Below are positions 12,532 to 62,212 of a stretch of DNA of 64,000 nt, one piece after another. The first letter of the stretch is position 1, and the number at the start of each line of letters is the position of its first letter. The notes beneath the pieces are model-generated. The model was not told where the DNA came from, ran no database searches, and worked only from the letters and a program-made list of their open reading frames with translations. The stretch spans positions 1-64,000 of the forward strand of contig JAHBZS010000005.1 in NCBI GenBank assembly GCA_019635285.1, given 5' to 3'. The translations under genes were made by a program, and so were the position numbers. Origin of the DNA: Rubrivivax sp. GTDB lineage: Bacteria > Pseudomonadota > Gammaproteobacteria > Burkholderiales > Burkholderiaceae_C.

Positions 12532-13651
12532 TCGCCTGCAGCGCGTCGACCAGGCTGCGCAGCACGCGCTCGCGGTCCACGCCGATCCACAGCGGCAGCC
12601 GCAGCAGGCGCTCGGCGGCGGCGTCGGTGTGCGGCATCGGCGTGGCCGCGCGGCCGAAGCGCTGCCCCGCGGGCGACGAGTGCAGCGGCACGTAGTGGAA
12701 CACCGCCTGCACGCCGGCGTCGCGCAGCTGGCCGATGACCGCCTGGCGCGCGGCCAGCGACGGCAGCAGCACGTAGTACATGTGCGCGTTGTGCGCGCAG
12801 TGCGGCGGCACCACGGGGCGGCGCAGCGAGCCGCGCGCCTCCAGCTCGGCCAGGCCGTCGTGGTAGTGCTGCCAGATCTCCAGCCGGCGCCGCCGGATCT
12901 CGTCGCCCTGCTCCAGCTGCGCCAGCAGGAAGGCGGCCACCAGCTCGCCGGGCAGATAGGACGAGCCGACGTCGACCCAGCGGTACTTGTCGACCTCGCC
13001 GCGGAAGAAGGCGCTGCGGTCGGTGCCTTTCTCGCGCAGGATCTCGGCGCGCCGCAGCAAGGTGGCGTCGTTGACCAGCAGCGCGCCGCCTTCGCCGGAG
13101 ATGACGTTCTTGGTCTCGTGGAAGCTCAGGCAGCCCAGCGCGCCCAGCGTGCCCAGCGGGCGGCCGCGGTAGTGCGCGCCGTAGGCCTGCGCGGCGTCTT
13201 CGATGAGCATCAGCCGGTGGCGCTGCGCGATGTCCCGCAACGCGTCCATCTCGCAGGCCACGCCGGCATAGTGCACCGGCACGATGGCGCGCGTGCGCGG
13301 CGTGATCGCCGCCTCGACCAGGCGCTCGTCCAGGTTGAGCGTGTCCGGCCGGATGTCCACGAACACCGGCACCGCGCCGCGCAGCACGAAGGCGTTGGCC
13401 GTGGAGCTGAAGGTGTACGACGGCAGGATCACCTCGTCGCCCGGGCCCACGCCGGCCAGCAGTGCGCCCATCTCCAGCGCGGCGGTGCACGAATGCGTGA
13501 GCAGCGCCTTGGCGCAGCCCAGCGCCTGCTCCAGCCGCGCATGGCAGCGCGAGGTGAAGCGGCCGTCGCCGGCGAGCATGCCGTGGGCATGCGCCTCGGC
13601 GATGTAGTCGAATTCCCTGCCGGTCAGGAAGGGCCGGTTGAATGCTTCCAA
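12515..13651 (-). CDS. wecE: dTDP-4-amino-4,6-dideoxygalactose transaminase
   Basis: A 378-residue PLP-dependent sugar aminotransferase of the DegT/RffA family. It transfers an amino group from glutamate to C4 of dTDP-4-keto-6-deoxyglucose for surface polysaccharide synthesis. The PLP lysine is K181 in SFHETKNVIS, and FHYVPLHSSPAG and LPSYTFSSTANAF match the WecE pattern. The start is taken as TTG 13651: GGGGAGG lies just upstream, and the resulting EAFNRPFLTGREFDY aligns with the N-terminus I recall for E. coli WecE. No other dTDP-sugar gene is nearby, so it is an orphan from a dispersed pathway. Confidence 0.92.
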   Translation of the reverse strand: MEAFNRPFLTGREFDYIAEAHAHGMLAGDGRFTSRCHARLEQALGCAKALLTHSCTAALEMGALLAGVGPGDEVILPSYTFSSTANAFVLRGAVPVFVDIRPDTLNLDERLVEAAITPRTRAIVPVHYAGVACEMDALRDIAQRHRLMLIEDAAQAYGAHYRGRPLGTLGALGCLSFHETKNVISGEGGALLVNDATLLRRAEILREKGTDRSAFFRGEVDKYRWVDVGSSYLPGELVAAFLLAQLEQGDEIRRRRLEIWQHYHDGLAELEARGSLRRPVVPPHCAHNAHMYYVLLPSLAARQAVIGQLRDAGVQAVFHYVPLHSSPAGQRFGRAATPMPHTDAAAERLLRLPLWIGVDRERVLRSLVDALQAISAPR

Positions 13652-56991: not shown

Positions 56992-59154
56992 TCAGGCTTC
57001 GCGCTCGGCGTTCGCCGGGTGCCCCACGCTGCGCAGGTCCTGCGACACGCGCCCGCCATGCAGCGCCACCACGCGGCCGGCGCTGGCGATGGTCTCGGGC
57101 CGGTGCGCCACGATCACACGCGTCAGCGCCAGCTGCCGCACCGCCTGGTTGACCAGCCGCTCGCCCTCGACATCGAGGGCGCTGGTGGCCTCGTCCAGCA
57201 GCAGGATCTTCGGCCGCTTGTACAGCGCACGCGCCAGCAGGATGCGCTGCTTCTGCCCGCCGGACAGGCTGGAGCCCATGTCGCCGATCAGCGTGTGGTA
57301 GCCCATGGGCATGGCCTCGATCTCGTCGTGCACCGAGGCCACGCGGGCGCAATGCACCACCCAGTCCATGTCGGGCTGCAGGTCGAAGAAGCTGATGTTG
57401 TCGGAGATCGAGCCGGAAAAGAGCGGCTCGTCCTGCATCACCACGCCGATCATGTCGCGCCAGGCGCGCAGGCCGAGCTGCGTCAGCGGCACGCCGCCGA
57501 CGAGCAGCTCGCCGGACTGGGGCGCGTGGATGCCGAGGATGACCTTCAGCAACGTGGTCTTGCCGCAGCCCGACGGGCCGACGATGGCCACCGATTCGCC
57601 GGGCTCGATGCGCAGCGATACCCCCGACAGCACCTCGGGTTCGGCGTCGGAATAGGCAAAGCTGACGTCGCGCAGCTCGATCTCCGGTATGCCGCTGACC
57701 TTGCGCCCGTGGTGGCCGGCGGCGTCCTCCTGCTCGGGTGCGGTCAGCACGATGTCGGCCAGCCGCTCGCCTTGCAGGCGCAGCATCTTCAGTTCCACCA
57801 CCTTGTCGATCAAACCACTGACGCGGGTGGCGAACTGCTCCTTGTAGGCCATGAAGGCGAAGAGCATGCCCACCGAGAACTTCTGGTCCAGCACCAGCAG
57901 CGCACCGATCCACACCACGGCCACCCGCTCCAGCCCGAAAAGCAGGCGGTGCAGCGCCGAGAACAGCAGATCCAGCTTGCGCGTGGCCAGGTCGGCATTC
58001 ATCGTGTCCACCACCAGGCTGGTGAAGCGCGACTGCCGGTCGGCCTGCGCATTGAACAGCTTGATCGCCTGCACCCCGCGCAGCGATTCGAGGAAGTGAC
58101 TGGACTTCTTCGATTCGTGCACCAGCGCCTCTTCGGTGGCGTCGCGCAGCGGCCTGAAGAAGGCCCAGCGCAGCAACGCATAGGCCGCCACCGCGCCCAG
58201 CACCACCGCGGTCAGCGTGCCGCTGTAGACGAACATCATCGCCAGCGTCAGCACCACCAGCAGCCCGTCGAGCACCGCCTCGATGAAACTGGTGGTCAGC
58301 GTCTTCTGGATCTCGTGCACCGCAGAAAAGCGCGACCAGATGTCGCCGATGTGGCGCTTCTCGAACCACTCCACCGGCAGGCGCATCAGGTGCGCGAACA
58401 CGTTCGCCAGCCACTGCAGGTTCAGCGTTGCCGACAGCACCAGCACGGCCCACGAACGGATCGCCGCCGTGCCGGCCTGGATGAGCACCAGCAGTCCGAA
58501 GCCCACGCCCAAGGTGGCCAGCAGGTCGCGGTCGGCGCTGACCAGCACGTCGTCCACCACCCACTGCATCAGGAAGGGGCTGAGCAGCATGAAGGCTTCC
58601 AGCGCCAGCGCCAGCACGAAGATCTGCGCCAGCGAGCGCTTCAGCCCGGTGATGCGGCCCAGCATCTGGCGCGGCGAGACATGCTGCTTCTCGATCCGCG
58701 GCTCGAAGTCGGCCGCCGGCGTCAGCTCCAGCACCACGCCGGTGAAATGGCGCGACACCTGCTCCAGCTTCAGCCGGCGCAGCCCATGCGCCGGGTCGTG
58801 GATGGTGGCGACGCCGCGGCTCACGCCCACCAGCACCACGAAGTGGTTCATGTCCCAGTGCAGGATGCAAGGCTGTTCCAGCTGGGCCAGGTCCTCGATC
58901 TCCGCACGCAGCGCGCGCGCGTGCAGCTTCAGGCTTTCGGCCATGCGCACCAGATCGAGCAGATTCACGCCCTTTAGCGACAAGGAGAAGCGCTGGCGCA
59001 GCGTCGGCAGGTCGGAGCGGTGCCCATGGGCCGCGGCCACCATCGCCAGGCAGGCCAGGCCGCACTCTGCGCCCTCGGTCTGCAGGATCACCGGCACGCG
59101 GCTGGAGCCGAAGCCCAGCCGCAGCCCGCCCCACTTGCCGAAACGCCCGCTCAC
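56992..59154 (-). CDS. C39-peptidase ABC exporter (PCAT) of double-glycine peptides
   Basis: A 720-residue peptidase-containing ABC transporter. The N-terminal C39 cysteine protease has an intact triad: C31 in [12 protein letters not shown]104 in [10 protein letters not shown] and D120 in IHDPAHG. It should cut substrates after Gly-Gly. A membrane domain with about six helices follows (about 160-440). The ATPase has Walker [13 protein letters not shown], signature LSGGQKQR and DEATSALD. The start is GTG 59154, after GAAGGG. Preceded by an HlyD adaptor and a GG-leader peptide gene, it forms a type I-like export system. A 16-bp palindrome overlaps its stop codon. Confidence 0.93.
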
Positions 59155-59212
59155 GAAAGCGCCCTTCGCGCGACACGCTCCGCAACGTGCGCTGGGGCGT
59201 GGCCCGCTGCAC

Positions 59213-60478
59213 TCATAACCGGTTGCCCAGGCCGAGCACCGGCGCAAACAGCCATTCGATCAGACGCCTGCGCTCCAGCAGCACGTCGGCCTCCATGCGC
59301 ATGCCGGCGACCAGCGGCTGCGCGACGCCGAACGCCTTCAGCTCCGGGTAGTCCATGGCCACGGTGATGCGGAACATCGGTTCGGCCGCGCCGTCCACGC
59401 CCGTCGGCACCGCCAAGGGCAGGCCGGCCAGTTCGGGGGCCGCCAGAGGCGTGCGCGACACCTGCAGCACATGGCCGGTCTGATGACCGAACTTCTGGTA
59501 CGGAAAGGCTTCGAAGCGCAACCGCACTTCCTGCTGCGGCCGCACGAAGCCCACCGCCCCGGAAGGCGCGAACAGGTGCGCCTGCAGATGGGCCCCCGAT
59601 GGCACCAGGCTGGCCAGCGCCGAGGCCGGCGACACGCTTTGCCCGGGCTCGGCCAGCACCGAGCTCACCGTACCGTCCTGCGGCGCCCGCACGACGATCT
59701 GGCGCACCGCGTCCTGCTCGGCCGCCTCCCGGGCCAGCGCGGCAAGATCCCTTTCGATCGCGCCCTGCCGAGACTTCAGCTGCACCGGCAGGCCCCGACG
59801 CTCGCCGTCCAGCACGGCCCGGTCGCGCGCCAGCGCGGCGCGCTGGCGCTCCATGGCCTGGGCCTGCACCTGCAGTCCCAACACCTCTTCCTTCTTGGTC
59901 TGCACCTGGGCCGGTGAGATGAACTGGTCGCGGCTCAGTGATTCCAGACGCTCCAGTGCTTGCTGCGCCAGCGCCAGGCGCTGACGATGCAGCGTCACCT
60001 CGGCCTCGACCTGCATCTGCTCGCGCGCCATCGCGTCGATGCGCCGCTGCAGCGACAGCATCTCGCCTTCGGCCAGCTGCGCCTGCTGGCGCGCGGCGTC
60101 CTCGAGGCTGCGCTTGCGCTCGTCCAGGCTGCGCTGCACACGGGCCTGCACGTCGGCGGACAGCGTGCTGCTTTCCAGCGCCAGCACGAACATCACGTCG
60201 CCGGCATGCACCGCCTGCCCTTCCTGCACGTGGCGCTCGAGCACCCGTCCCTGCACCGGCGGCACCAGGCGAATGACCCCGAGGTCGGGCACCAGCACAC
60301 CGCCGATGCGCGCCTTGCGGGTGTATTCGCCAAGGAACAGGAAGGCCAGCACCAGCGCCAGCACACAGACGACGCTGAGCGTGTACACGGTGAGCGACAG
60401 CGGGCGCACGAGTTGCACCTGGCCCAGCCAGTTCTGACGCTGGGCCTCGGCGACCTCGGGACGAAACAGCGAGGACAT
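59213..60478 (-). CDS. HlyD-type periplasmic adaptor protein
   Basis: A 421-residue membrane-fusion protein for the C39 exporter encoded 58 bp downstream. A single N-terminal membrane helix (about residues 28-50), a lipoyl half-motif (GRVLERHVQEGQAVHAGD), a long coiled-coil hairpin (about 110-260, rich in Ala, Gln, Leu, Arg) and the second lipoyl half (VRAPQDGTVSSVLAEPGQSV) are visible. It links the inner-membrane exporter to an outer-membrane TolC-like channel, which is not in this window. The start ATG 60478 leaves the terminator and palindrome outside the gene; a longer start at 60598 is possible but would place both inside it. Confidence 0.88.
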   Translation of the reverse strand: MSSLFRPEVAEAQRQNWLGQVQLVRPLSLTVYTLSVVCVLALVLAFLFLGEYTRKARIGGVLVPDLGVIRLVPPVQGRVLERHVQEGQAVHAGDVMFVLALESSTLSADVQARVQRSLDERKRSLEDAARQQAQLAEGEMLSLQRRIDAMAREQMQVEAEVTLHRQRLALAQQALERLESLSRDQFISPAQVQTKKEEVLGLQVQAQAMERQRAALARDRAVLDGERRGLPVQLKSRQGAIERDLAALAREAAEQDAVRQIVVRAPQDGTVSSVLAEPGQSVSPASALASLVPSGAHLQAHLFAPSGAVGFVRPQQEVRLRFEAFPYQKFGHQTGHVLQVSRTPLAAPELAGLPLAVPTGVDGAAEPMFRITVAMDYPELKAFGVAQPLVAGMRMEADVLLERRRLIEWLFAPVLGLGNRL

Positions 60479-60540
60479 AGACACTAGCGCCGTCCCCGTC
60501 GACGACAGGCTCGACCGCCGCTCGCGACCGAGGGGGCGAC

Positions 60541-60556
60541 GCGCTTGATCAAGCGC
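60541..60556. promoter_or_regulatory. Perfect 16-bp palindrome upstream of the adaptor gene
   Basis: GCGCTTGATCAAGCGC is fully self-complementary. It lies between the peptide terminator and the HlyD start, where an operator for exporter expression would be expected. Its binding protein is unknown. Confidence 0.4.
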
Positions 60557-60561
60557 AAACG

Positions 60562-60589
60562 AAAAAGCGGACCGGACAAGCCGGCCCGC
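60562..60589 (-). terminator. Intrinsic terminator after the GG-leader peptide gene
   Basis: On the minus strand, GCGGGCCGG-CTTGT-CCGGTCCGC forms a 9-bp stem with one G-U pair and is followed by TTTTT. It lies about 105 bp after the peptide stop and before the adaptor gene, so it would make most transcripts peptide-only, with some readthrough into the exporter genes. Confidence 0.78.
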
Positions 60590-60693
60590 GGACATCATGG
60601 CAGGCCATCAAGCCAACCATAATGCCAATCAGCCTAGGTGCACATCACCAAGTACCCCTAGGCCTCTTGATCGTGGCCCGAAGGCCGGTAGGT

Positions 60694-60846
60694 CTACTTC
60701 CTGTCCCAGCCGCCCTTGGGCAGCCCCCCGGCGACCTTCTTCAGGTCGTCCAGGTCCAGCACAACCGGTCCGCTCTTGGCCGGCTTCTTCTCCGCAACGA
60801 CGTCGGCGGCAGTCTTCTTCTTCTTTGGGGCAACTGCTTTCTTCAT
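60694..60846 (-). CDS. Double-glycine-leader peptide with a 9-residue core
   Basis: A 50-codon gene found by reading the sequence; AAGGAG lies six bases before the ATG. The N-terminus is Lys/Ala-rich (MKKAVAPKKKKTAAD…). Residues 28-41 (VVLDLDDLKKVAGG) form a typical double-glycine leader with spaced hydrophobic residues, after which a C39 peptidase should cut. The remaining product is LPKGGWDRK (42-50), much shorter than usual bacteriocins. It lies between luxR and the HlyD-C39 exporter genes, with a lux-box-like site upstream and a terminator downstream. A signal peptide, a modified peptide and an antimicrobial are all possible; which one is unknown. Confidence 0.8.
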   Translation of the reverse strand: MKKAVAPKKKKTAADVVAEKKPAKSGPVVLDLDDLKKVAGGLPKGGWDRK

Positions 60847-60922
60847 GAGGACTCCTTCTGGTTCGGCCTGTGCGACCGTCCGCGCACGTCTGCATTGCAG
60901 CAGCGGTAGTGAAGAAAGAACA

Positions 60923-60938
60923 CTGTCAGCTCTTACAG
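60923..60938 (-). promoter_or_regulatory. Lux-box-like site upstream of the peptide gene
   Basis: CTG-N10-CAG (plus-strand reading CTGTCAGCTCTTACAG) lies 77 bp before the peptide ATG. It shares 13 of 16 bases with the site at 61744. This is the expected half-site pattern for LuxR-type regulators, such as the one encoded next door. Confidence 0.62.
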
Positions 60939-60979
60939 GGTGAGCCCTTGACGCGACAGCGTGTCGGCACCGCTGGGCG

Positions 60980-61693
60980 TCAGTGAATCAACCCGAGTCG
61001 CAGTGCCTTCAGCACGGCGGCATGCTTGCTGGCACAGCCCAGCTTGTGCATCGCGTTGTTGACGTGCAGCACGGCGGTACGCTCGCTGATCCCGAGTATC
61101 GCGCCCACTTCCCAGGCGGTCTTGCCTTCCATCGTCCAGTGCAGGGCCTCCAACTCCCGGGGCGTCAGCAACGGCCTCTCCGGCTGCATCGGCTCGGGCA
61201 GCAGCAGGCGCAGCGCCGCTTCCTGCGCATGCACCGCAAACAGCTGCAGGTCGGCCACCACGCGTTGCAGCTCGGCGGCATCGCCCGGCAACGGCTTGTC
61301 GCGGTCCACGCCCAGCACGAAATGCCGCCCTTCGGGCAGGTGCAGCGCCATGGCAATGCCGGTGTTGAAGCCGAAGCGCGCCTGCTCCTCCCACAGCTCA
61401 CCCATGCCCTGCACGGTGTAGGTCTGCTGGTCCCAGATGATCGGCACGCTCTGCTTGCGGCAATGCTGCATCACCGGGTCGCGGCGCATCATCTCGACGT
61501 CGCGGAAGGTGCTCGAAAACTCCTGCGGCGTGTTGTCGACACTGATGAAGTCGGTGCCCGCGAGGCCCCGATCGACCACGGTGACCGCGGCCACGGTATC
61601 GAAGCCGAGGCGCTGCGCAAAGCGCACGATCTCATCGCGGAACTCGTCGCGGTCCTTGGCTTTGAGCACGGAAGAGTAGCCGCCGGGCAGCAT
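60980..61693 (-). CDS. LuxR-family regulator with autoinducer-binding domain (solo)
   Basis: A 237-residue LuxR-type regulator: an N-terminal autoinducer-binding domain (about 20-160) and a C-terminal helix-turn-helix (LTPRELEALHWTMEGKTAWEVGAILGISERTAVLHVNNAMHKLG). Relative to LasR/TraR, the conserved D-P (D72, P73) and W87 (PIIW) are kept, but the positions of W57 and Y61 are both Phe (F59, F63). It may therefore bind an acyl-homoserine lactone variant or another ligand. No LuxI synthase is in the window. The start could be ATG 61693 or a TTG at 61723. It likely acts on the flanking CTG-N10-CAG sites. Confidence 0.9.
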   Translation of the reverse strand: MLPGGYSSVLKAKDRDEFRDEIVRFAQRLGFDTVAAVTVVDRGLAGTDFISVDNTPQEFSSTFRDVEMMRRDPVMQHCRKQSVPIIWDQQTYTVQGMGELWEEQARFGFNTGIAMALHLPEGRHFVLGVDRDKPLPGDAAELQRVVADLQLFAVHAQEAALRLLLPEPMQPERPLLTPRELEALHWTMEGKTAWEVGAILGISERTAVLHVNNAMHKLGCASKHAAVLKALRLGLIH

Positions 61694-61743
61694 CAGAATG
61701 CCCCAAGTGCTCCAGGACGCCAAAGCTGCCGCCGGCGCGTGCC

Positions 61744-61759
61744 CTGACAGGGCTTACAG
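61744..61759 (+). promoter_or_regulatory. Second lux-box-like site, upstream of the 138-codon gene
   Basis: CTGACAGGGCTTACAG shows CTG-N10-CAG and is nearly the same as the site at 60923-60938. It lies in the divergent region between luxR and the unknown plus-strand gene and could control one or both. Confidence 0.6.
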
Positions 61760-61795
61760 CTTCCAAGGGCTGCGCCATTCCGGAAACATACCGGC

Positions 61796-62212
61796 ATGTT
61801 CAGCACCTCGAGTCCTTCCGACCCCTCACACATGACTCCCACCACACCTTGGTCCATCCGGGCGTGGCCCCCCATATTGTGGCAGGCCGGGCGCGAATCG
61901 CAATTGCACTTCCACCACCTCAGCACACGCGTCACCATGCCGGGCGACAGGAAATCGCGCACGGCAGGCCAGACCATCTGGGGCGGGCACTCCGCCGCCG
62001 GTGAGGCCGGTGTGGCCTGGGACTGGGTGCAGGTCTGCGGTGAAGTCGTGGCCATGGCCGATCCGATGTGCGTGGTGACCAACCTGCGCCTCGTCGGCGA
62101 GGAGGGTGAAGTGTTGACCGCGCTGGAATCAGCGCGCTTTCTCAACGAGATCGTGCACGCGCTGCCTTGGCAGACGGAAGTGCAGCGCGCCCTGCAGGTG
62201 GGCGAAGCCTGA
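61796..62212 (+). CDS. Hypothetical protein beside the luxR-peptide locus
   Basis: A protein of 138 codons if read from ATG 61796, or 126 from ATG 61832. The second start would suit a promoter at the lux-box-like site, since the first would leave almost no 5' leader. Soluble, with no signal or membrane segment. It contains GVAWDWVQVCGEVVAMADPMCVVTNLRLVGEEGEVL and ends in an amphipathic helix (LNEIVHALPWQTEVQRAL). I do not recognise the family. Its divergence from luxR and its own lux-box-like site suggest it belongs to the same regulon. Confidence 0.7.
   Translation: MFSTSSPSDPSHMTPTTPWSIRAWPPILWQAGRESQLHFHHLSTRVTMPGDRKSRTAGQTIWGGHSAAGEAGVAWDWVQVCGEVVAMADPMCVVTNLRLVGEEGEVLTALESARFLNEIVHALPWQTEVQRALQVGEA

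What the first reader, a model, noticed from the sequence alone, without database searches (positions are those of the whole stretch)
56992..62212. Candidate undescribed peptide-secretion locus: LuxR solo, 9-residue GG peptide, HlyD and C39 exporter
A LuxR-type regulator, a GG-leader peptide gene, a terminator, an HlyD adaptor and a C39-peptidase ABC exporter lie on one strand just upstream of mnmG. Each part is a known family, but the peptide core (LPKGGWDRK) is very small, and control by a LuxR solo through paired lux-box-like sites is unusual for such exporters. The whole looks like a density- or ligand-controlled short-peptide signal or weapon.
Basis: partly seen in the sequence, partly recalled or inferred. 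Interest (0 to 1): 0.9.

Follow-up and report, generated by a model that had tools for sequence, protein, structure and literature searches.

The report
Peptide signal paired with LuxR receptor
Next to an orphan quorum-sensing receptor sits a tiny gene that seems to encode a secreted six-residue peptide, in the slot where related circuits keep the enzyme that makes the usual signal molecule, which suggests an undescribed kind of bacterial communication that can be tested at the bench.

Summary
The window holds a conserved cassette: RsaM-like gene (divergent), LuxR solo, GG-leader peptide, terminator, HlyD, C39 exporter. Of the 80 best exporter homologues, the 47 with the LuxR all carry the peptide; the other 33 (9 of them too short to tell) gave no profile hit. 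The conserved unit is not LPKGGWDRK but a hexapeptide, usually xPxxxW (here LPKGGW). In 23 of 70 precursors it is repeated 2-5 times: copies agree within a precursor (46 of 47 pairs) but rarely between precursors (5 of 253), and 40 of 48 identical pairs differ in codons, as expected of a specificity-coded pheromone. In stretches without the exporter, 9 of 11 loci still have a leaderless micro-ORF with a similar C-terminus directly after luxR. A lux box precedes the peptide gene in 54 of 54 exporter-type loci; no luxI was found in the window's genome. I read it as a quorum-sensing circuit in which a ribosomal peptide replaces the acyl-homoserine lactone as partner of a LuxR-type receptor. Binding, secretion and import are inferred, not shown. 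I found no description in the held open-access papers.

The parts
61796..62212 (+). RsaM-like (DUF4902) gene, divergent from luxR; start codon uncertain
   Evidence: PF16245 E 2e-4, below its cut-off; 21 of 31 aligned proteins match PF16245 at E<=0.001; profile hit to RsaM structure 4o2h E 0.0024; AlphaFold model matches 4o2h, Foldseek E 3.4e-5
61744..61759 (-). lux box between rsaM and luxR, CTGTAAGCCCTGTCAG
   Evidence: best site scores 7-8 of 8 palindrome positions in 51 of 54 loci; whole-genome scan
60980..61693 (-). LuxR solo: autoinducer-binding domain plus GerE HTH; ATG at 61693
   Evidence: fold like QscR, RhlR, LasR; the only PF03472 match found in the genome
60923..60938 (-). lux box in front of the peptide gene, CTGTAAGAGCTGACAG
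   Evidence: 8/8 in 49 of 54 loci and 7/8 in 5
60852..60857 (-). Shine-Dalgarno AAGGAG of the peptide gene
   Evidence: read
60694..60846 (-). precursor peptide gene, 50 aa, GG leader plus core
60724..60846 (-). leader, ending LDLDDLKKVAGG
60706..60723 (-). core hexapeptide LPKGGW, the proposed signal; followed by a variable tail DRK (60697-60705)
60567..60589 (-). terminator-like hairpin between the peptide gene and hlyD
59213..60478 (-). HlyD-type periplasmic adaptor; start chosen by eye at MSSLFRPE
   Evidence: in frame without stops, homologue in 47 of 47 LuxR-bearing loci
56992..59154 (-). C39-peptidase ABC exporter; start uncertain
   Evidence: Q/ECG, HW..NHF and DP motifs of the C39 site and LSGGQKQR are visible in the ORF (motif meaning recalled)

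Best explanation
The locus is a self-contained quorum-sensing circuit. A LuxR-type receptor is paired with a ribosomally made peptide pheromone instead of a LuxI-made acyl-homoserine lactone. Proposed working: (1) basal transcription gives the 50-aa precursor; (2) the C39 exporter cuts after GG and, with HlyD and an outer-membrane channel, exports the core; (3) proteases trim it to about LPKGGW (in other species they release 2-5 identical copies); (4) the peptide returns through a general oligopeptide importer; (5) it binds the pocket of the LuxR solo, which no longer has the lactone-contacting Trp; (6) LuxR then binds the two lux boxes and raises luxR and peptide expression, while RsaM holds the loop down. 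Shown here: gene content, conservation, repeat structure, lux boxes, pocket substitution, persistence of a similar peptide where no exporter is found. Inferred: steps 1-6.
For: Peptide tracks LuxR: 47 of 47 exporter loci with LuxR have it, and 0 of the 33 without LuxR gave a profile hit, 9 of those with under 1900 nt upstream. It persists without exporter: 9 of 11 stretches lacking HlyD/C39 carry an ATG micro-ORF ending [LIVFAMS]P[RKN]xG.. within 300 nt of luxR, e.g. MNAFKTSQTTPNIPRVGGW and MKPSHALDASSLSPKGGWSPKGGWWAPKGGW, against 8 of 689 other gene ends, 6 of which are these same LuxR genes. Tandem copies: within-precursor identity 46/47, between 5/253; 40/48 identical pairs differ in codons. 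Lux box at the peptide promoter in 54/54 exporter-type loci. The exact box occurs once each in 26 of 150 family genomes: by coordinates 24 lie beside the solo luxR and one lies 117 bases upstream of a luxI in G049. So the peptide sits where luxI sits in AHL circuits; downstream of two less related LuxRs (L152, L155) a LuxI-like frame is seen. No luxI in own genome; 35 of 38 genomes with this LuxR type have no luxI match at E<1e-20, 33 of 38 none at E<=0.001. LasR Trp60 position is Tyr/Phe in 52 of 53 rows. LuxR residue 49 (LasR Ala50) is Phe in 67 of 71 loci whose core ends in W and in 0 of 9 where it does not.
Against: No binding, secretion or expression data. The lux box is not general: of the 11 exporter-less loci only L136 and L147 have it, the other 9 score 5-6 of 8, like shuffles, and 13 of 38 solo-bearing genomes lack the strict pattern. 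The residue-49 pattern rests on about 2-3 independent changes; the tree-aware test cannot reach significance (median p 0.5). Other LuxR columns show little coupling to core sequence. D, P, W88 and G of the AHL site are kept, so a lactone or other small ligand is not excluded. No dedicated importer was seen in the cassette, although 8 SBP_bac_5 matches exist in the genome. No wider regulon was seen. The micro-ORF regexes were written after seeing the sequences. By the stricter P.{3,4}W ending, 6 of 11 match against 22 of 689. L139's C-terminus (FPITGN) fails both regexes, L140 is cut off by the contig end, and L151 (43% identity) shows no obvious peptide (by eye).
Confidence: 0.6

Rival explanations
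1. The LuxR solo senses an AHL or other small molecule from neighbours and switches on secretion of a peptide that acts on something else (interspecies signal, host or competitor). The peptide is output, not input.
For: LuxR keeps D72, P73, W87 and G112 of the AHL pocket in the exporter-type set. Three genomes carry both a strong luxI and the cassette LuxR. AHL-responsive solos are known (PMC10134790, passages read).
Against: A similar peptide persists next to LuxR where no exporter is found. The lactone-contacting Trp is replaced in 52 of 53 rows. The peptide gene carries the autoinduction-type lux box.
Confidence: 0.21
2. The peptide is a pheromone, but it is sensed by another receptor (for example a membrane receptor); the LuxR only times its production.
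For: No importer in the cassette; GG-exported peptides of Gram-positives are often sensed outside the cell (recalled, no call).
Against: Between luxR and exporter there is room for peptide and hlyD but hardly for a receptor gene; genes further out were not surveyed. In exporter-less loci only RsaM, LuxR and the micro-ORF were recognised.
Confidence: 0.11
3. Secreted antimicrobial (microcin or bacteriocin) with C39/HlyD export under LuxR control.
For: GG leader and C39/HlyD exporter resemble bacteriocin export loci (best NCBIfam score is the NHLP exporter).
Against: Six-residue core in 1-5 copies; no room for an immunity or modification gene between peptide and exporter (genes further out not surveyed); exporter far below the NHLP cut-off (510.6 versus 853.3 bits); similar peptide present without exporter.
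Confidence: 0.06
4. The short ORF is a chance frame without function.
For: Very short, GC-rich DNA.
Against: Conserved leader and position, RBS, terminator, and only synonymous differences between core copies.
Confidence: 0.02

Closest known systems
LuxI/LuxR acyl-homoserine-lactone circuits with RsaM (review PMC10710839, passages read)
   Same: LuxR-type receptor, lux boxes, divergent RsaM. [quoted passage not shown]
   Different: No luxI; a peptide gene occupies its slot. The word 'peptide' does not occur in that review's main text.
PipR/OryR plant-associated LuxR solos (PMC4981722, abstract and passages read)
   Same: A LuxR homologue that responds to a peptide (Ser-His-Ser, at 1 mM or more) taken up by an ABC importer, and not to AHLs.
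   Different: There the signal comes from plants or protein digests, and the flanking genes are peptidases and an importer; no precursor gene, exporter or RsaM is mentioned in what I read.
RRNPP / Rgg-SHP / ComRS peptide quorum sensing of Firmicutes (recalled; PMC10075063 abstract start seen in a search listing)
   Same: Adjacent propeptide and intracellular receptor; short C-terminal signal; species-specific code.
   Different: The receptor here is a LuxR-type protein in a Gram-negative, not a TPR-type protein.
HetC of Nostoc (PMC10986499, abstract and outline read)
   Same: C39 ABC exporter proposed to export a signalling peptide in a Gram-negative.
   Different: Developmental system; no LuxR or tandem hexapeptides mentioned in the abstract.
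NHLP-type and other C39/HlyD bacteriocin exporters
   Same: Exporter architecture and GG leader.
   Different: Scores below the curated cut-offs; the peptide has no Pfam or NCBIfam match.

Membership tests
LuxR-type autoinducer receptor | PF03472 plus GerE HTH, LuxR fold | tested here: met
   57 of 57 rows match both; Foldseek best hits QscR, RhlR, LasR
LuxI/LuxR AHL circuit | cognate luxI adjacent or in the genome | tested here: not met
   0 matches in own genome (94.5% complete, its 14 controls silent); the same model finds luxI in relatives; only 3 of 38 solo-bearing genomes have one at E<1e-20, 5 of 38 at E<=0.001
LuxI/LuxR AHL circuit | conserved AHL-site residues (LasR W60, Y64, D73, P74, W88, G; importance recalled) | tested here: inconclusive
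   W60 position Tyr/Phe in 52 of 53, Ala in two of the G096 array; Y64 position variable; D, P and G kept; W88 kept in the exporter type, Tyr in most exporter-less LuxRs
RsaM | DUF4902 domain, RsaM fold, gene beside luxR | tested here: met
   the window protein alone is below the PF16245 cut-off (21.7 versus 25 bits); divergent from luxR in 45 of 47 loci
C39 exporter with GG-leader substrate | C39 domain, ABC exporter, GG leader, HlyD partner | tested here: met
   cleavage itself not testable here
NHLP bacteriocin exporter | TIGR03796 above cut-off | tested here: not met
   510.6 versus 853.3 bits
PAB/OryR-type LuxR solo | adjacent proline iminopeptidase or peptide importer | tested here: not met
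   In the window the neighbours are RsaM, the peptide, HlyD, C39 ABC, an ABC-2 transporter and mnmG
Peptide quorum sensing | peptide is secreted, sensed and autoinduces | not testable with these tools
   Needs bench work; genomic signs only
RiPP or bacteriocin | modifying enzyme or immunity gene in the operon | tested here: inconclusive
   None between luxR and exporter in the window, and 1270-1815 nt between peptide and exporter in the relatives, about the size of hlyD; genes outside the cassette were not surveyed

The most novel reading that the evidence does not exclude
A new class of quorum sensing: LuxR-family receptors whose cognate autoinducer is a gene-encoded hexapeptide (usually xPxxxW). 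The peptide gene took over the place of luxI in an RsaM-LuxR circuit and diversified into a species-specific code (45 distinct hexamers), in two export modes, GG leader with C39 exporter and leaderless micro-ORF.
Probability: 0.55. Interest if true: 0.97.

Novelty: categorically new. Interest (0 to 1): 0.9.

Why it matters
LuxR receptors are the textbook receptors for acyl-homoserine lactones, and peptide pheromones with cytoplasmic receptors are the textbook Gram-positive mode. A LuxR receptor with its own ribosomal peptide would join the two. It would give a set of LuxR solos of unknown ligand a candidate ligand that can be read from the genome and ordered as a synthetic hexapeptide, and it would offer a naturally diversified receptor-peptide set (45 hexamers). 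RsaM, whose mechanism the review calls unknown, would gain a second kind of circuit to act on.

Tried and rejected
Plasmid records: no tblastn match to the peptide. Pfam and NCBIfam: no match for the peptide. Direct peptide search in 150 family genomes: 13 genomes with hits at E<=0.1 including the own one, some of them chance frames; the LuxR proved the better probe. A wider regulon: at up to two mismatches the lux-box scan of the own genome gave 58 strand hits against 36 for the reversed control, palindromic self-pairs included; the one further one-mismatch site, C45:146485, lies in an open frame. Across 150 genomes the exact box occurs once in each of 26, so no shared regulon emerged. Receptor-ligand covariation: over 38 LuxRs one column (49) passed a permutation threshold that ignores kinship; the tree-aware test had too few independent changes, so it is offered as a lead only. 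Spread: 6 of 399 order genomes and 2 of 369 class genomes, the window's own included in both, had a LuxR at E<=1e-30; besides G091 of the same family (67%) these are one of 43% (G260) and four of 31-34%. In these two calls at most 7 first-look candidates per genome were scored, so misses are possible. Chance ORF, bacteriocin and AHL-driven output are treated as rivals.

Limits and dropped rows. One search found 541 exporter relatives and kept the best 80; the counts hold for those 80. The HlyD query was in a wrong frame, so its HlyD rows are not to be used; one search repeats the search in the right frame (47 of 47, 47-89% identity). L017 was a false profile hit and was left out. Duplicates (L004, L006, L012, L013) were left out. 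G090's pair of cores is the one within-precursor mismatch and was kept. The core list was typed by hand, leaves out the leaderless micro-ORFs, and holds some near-identical species. In one search six of the eight background hits are LuxR genes of the tested loci that the filter failed to remove; the raw numbers are given. 'Exporter-less' means no HlyD or like C39 exporter match in the stretch fetched (the ABC matches there are 28-30% identical partial ones); L140 and L141 are cut by a contig end 188 and 1025 nt after luxR, and the rest of those genomes was not searched for exporters (G007 and G078 do hold the exporter type elsewhere). In one search L141 (WLC tail) was counted as non-W, and the 71 include one gap row.
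Full report
What is in the window. Reading the minus strand from 61.7 kb to 57 kb: a LuxR solo, a 50-aa GG-leader peptide gene, a terminator-like hairpin, an HlyD adaptor and a C39-peptidase ABC exporter, then mnmG. Divergent from luxR lies a 138-aa ORF. It is a weak DUF4902 (RsaM) match alone, but with its relatives it hits the solved RsaM structure 4o2h by profile (E 0.0024), and its AlphaFold model (pLDDT 83.7) matches 4o2h by fold (Foldseek E 3.4e-5, TM 0.65).

The peptide is a family. One scan of genome contigs found 541 exporter relatives and kept the best 80. A profile of the peptide, grown from a phmmer search, finds a precursor at the same place in 45 of the 47 loci that hold the LuxR, and reading the other two (L045, L066) by eye shows one there too. 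None of the other 33 gave a profile hit; 9 of these have under 1900 nt upstream, so 24 are informative. HlyD is present in 47 of 47 (the HlyD rows came from a wrong-frame query and are superseded). RsaM is divergent in 45 of the 47; in the other two, one contig begins inside luxR and one flank shows no RsaM. The leader ends in a pattern like PVxLdxxxLxxVsGG. What follows holds a hexamer, usually xPxxxW, alone or in 2-5 exact copies: LPRGTW x4, GPNGGW x5, APKSGW x2, APTKGW x2, and so on.

Signature of a coded signal. Of 70 precursors (list typed), 64 hold xPxxxW, 23 hold it more than once and 51 end exactly in W. Copies within a precursor are identical in 46 of 47 pairs; between multi-copy precursors in 5 of 253, one copy drawn from each. 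At DNA level 40 of 48 identical pairs differ, necessarily by synonymous changes (this set includes two LPRVS precursors). So selection appears to keep the copies alike in protein sequence while species differ. Six precursors lack xPxxxW: LPSSW, LPRVGGW, LPRVS twice, LPRVG twice.

The peptide follows the receptor, not the exporter. In 150 genomes of the family, LuxRs of this type (E<1e-50, 42-100% identity) occur in 38. I fetched 20 stretches. Eleven solos have no HlyD or like C39 exporter in the stretch (L140 and L141 are cut short by a contig end). Directly downstream of most sits a leaderless micro-ORF with a related C-terminus...IPRVGGW...LPRGGWLC...IPRIGPW...LPRAGW...SPKGGWSPKGGWWAPKGGW...FPRTGW...FPRVGF (two ORFs)...LPRNGG...LPKLGG, and less clearly ...FPITGN; the eleventh has only 188 nt left after luxR. 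By a regex written after seeing them, 9 of 11 match, against 8 of 689 other gene ends, and 6 of those 8 are these LuxR genes themselves; by a W-ending regex 6 of 11 against 22 of 689. Two of these genomes, G011 and G143, belong to one genus (codes). Their LuxRs are 73% and 59% identical to the window's; they lack leader and exporter at this locus, yet have the lux box and a W-ending core, in different forms.

It stands where luxI stands. A lux box (CTGTAAGANNTGACAG type) lies between luxR and peptide in 54 of 54 exporter-type loci examined: 49 match 8 of 8 palindrome positions and 5 match 7 of 8, shuffle mean 5.5. A second, slightly weaker box lies between rsaM and luxR: 51 of 54 with 7 or 8 of 8, one with 6, two not scored, shuffle mean 5.4. 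The strict pattern occurs in 26 of 150 family genomes, once each, against 2 hits of the reversed control; by coordinates 24 lie beside the solo luxR, one (G049) lies 117 bases upstream of a luxI, and one (G028) is elsewhere. Against this, 13 of the 38 solo-bearing genomes lack the strict pattern, and 9 of the 11 exporter-less loci have no such box after luxR. In more distant LuxRs a LuxI-like frame is visible beside two of five (L152, L155). The own genome has no luxI match (that call's own controls were silent, but the same model finds luxI in relatives). Nine of the 150 genomes have luxI at E<1e-20, and 3 of these also have the solo; at E<=0.001 it is 24 and 5.

The receptor. The LuxR model (pLDDT 86.8) is closest to QscR, RhlR and LasR. 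At the LasR Trp60 position, which holds Trp in the LasR, QscR and RhlR rows and is recalled as the lactone contact, these LuxRs have Tyr (38), Phe (14) or Trp (1) of 53; two members of the G096 array have Ala. Asp, Pro and Gly of the pocket are kept, and Trp88 in the exporter type. Segment 57-70 is the most variable: mean variability 0.57 against 0.16 for 71-92. Residue 49, aligned with LasR Ala50, is Phe in 67 of 71 loci with a W-ending core and in 0 of 9 without. This is suggestive, but kinship leaves only 2-3 independent cases.

Mechanism. Best supported is an autoinducing peptide circuit: export and leader cleavage by C39/HlyD, trimming, re-import (8 SBP_bac_5 matches exist in the genome), binding to LuxR, activation of luxR and the peptide gene, restraint by RsaM. 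Only gene content and sequence patterns are shown; every biochemical step is inferred. The main rival is that LuxR answers to another ligand and the peptide is output.

Novelty. Searches of the held library listed no paper that I could recognise as describing a LuxR paired with a gene-encoded peptide; of the listed papers I saw titles and abstract starts, and I read passages of PMC10134790, PMC10710839 and PMC4981722 and the outline of PMC10986499. The RsaM review knows the rsaM/luxR-solo topology (type 6, in Pelomonas among others), but no peptide. PipR shows that a LuxR can answer to a peptide-like ligand. Subscription papers and bioRxiv were not searched, so earlier description cannot be excluded.

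Noticed in passing
L131 7540-11774 (G096) and L132 6645-9974 (G066): Arrays of about five tandem paralogues of the solo LuxR (51-66% identical to the window's; one in G066 only a partial match) beside one peptide gene of this family: a natural receptor-duplication series.
   Followed up: partly
L132 10445-17432 (G066): A second HlyD and C39 exporter pair (36% and 53% identical to the window's) on the other strand, with a glycine-rich microcin-like ORF (13005-13295) and a CAAX-protease-like ORF between them (named by eye).
   Followed up: no
L131 7104-7322: A second GG-leader ORF (MRELKSEEIAVIGGA then a proline-rich tail) between the LuxR array and HlyD.
   Followed up: no
L133/L134 (G007); L112/L135 (G078): Two genomes carry both the exporter-type and the leaderless type of RsaM-LuxR-peptide unit, that is two different circuits in one cell.
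   Followed up: partly
window 60540-60700 (-): The stretch after the peptide gene folds far better than shuffles (z -5.56): further hairpins precede the terminator, perhaps setting the ratio of peptide to exporter transcript.
   Followed up: partly
G049:C1:376655-377261: The same strict lux box stands upstream of a luxI in a family genome without the solo LuxR, a possible link between the AHL and the peptide circuits.
   Followed up: partly
L074-L084, L086-L091, L093-L097: More distant homologues of the exporter (52-57% identity; Chromobacterium, Massilia, Lysobacter, Burkholderia and others) gave no match to the LuxR or this peptide; their substrates were not examined.
   Followed up: no
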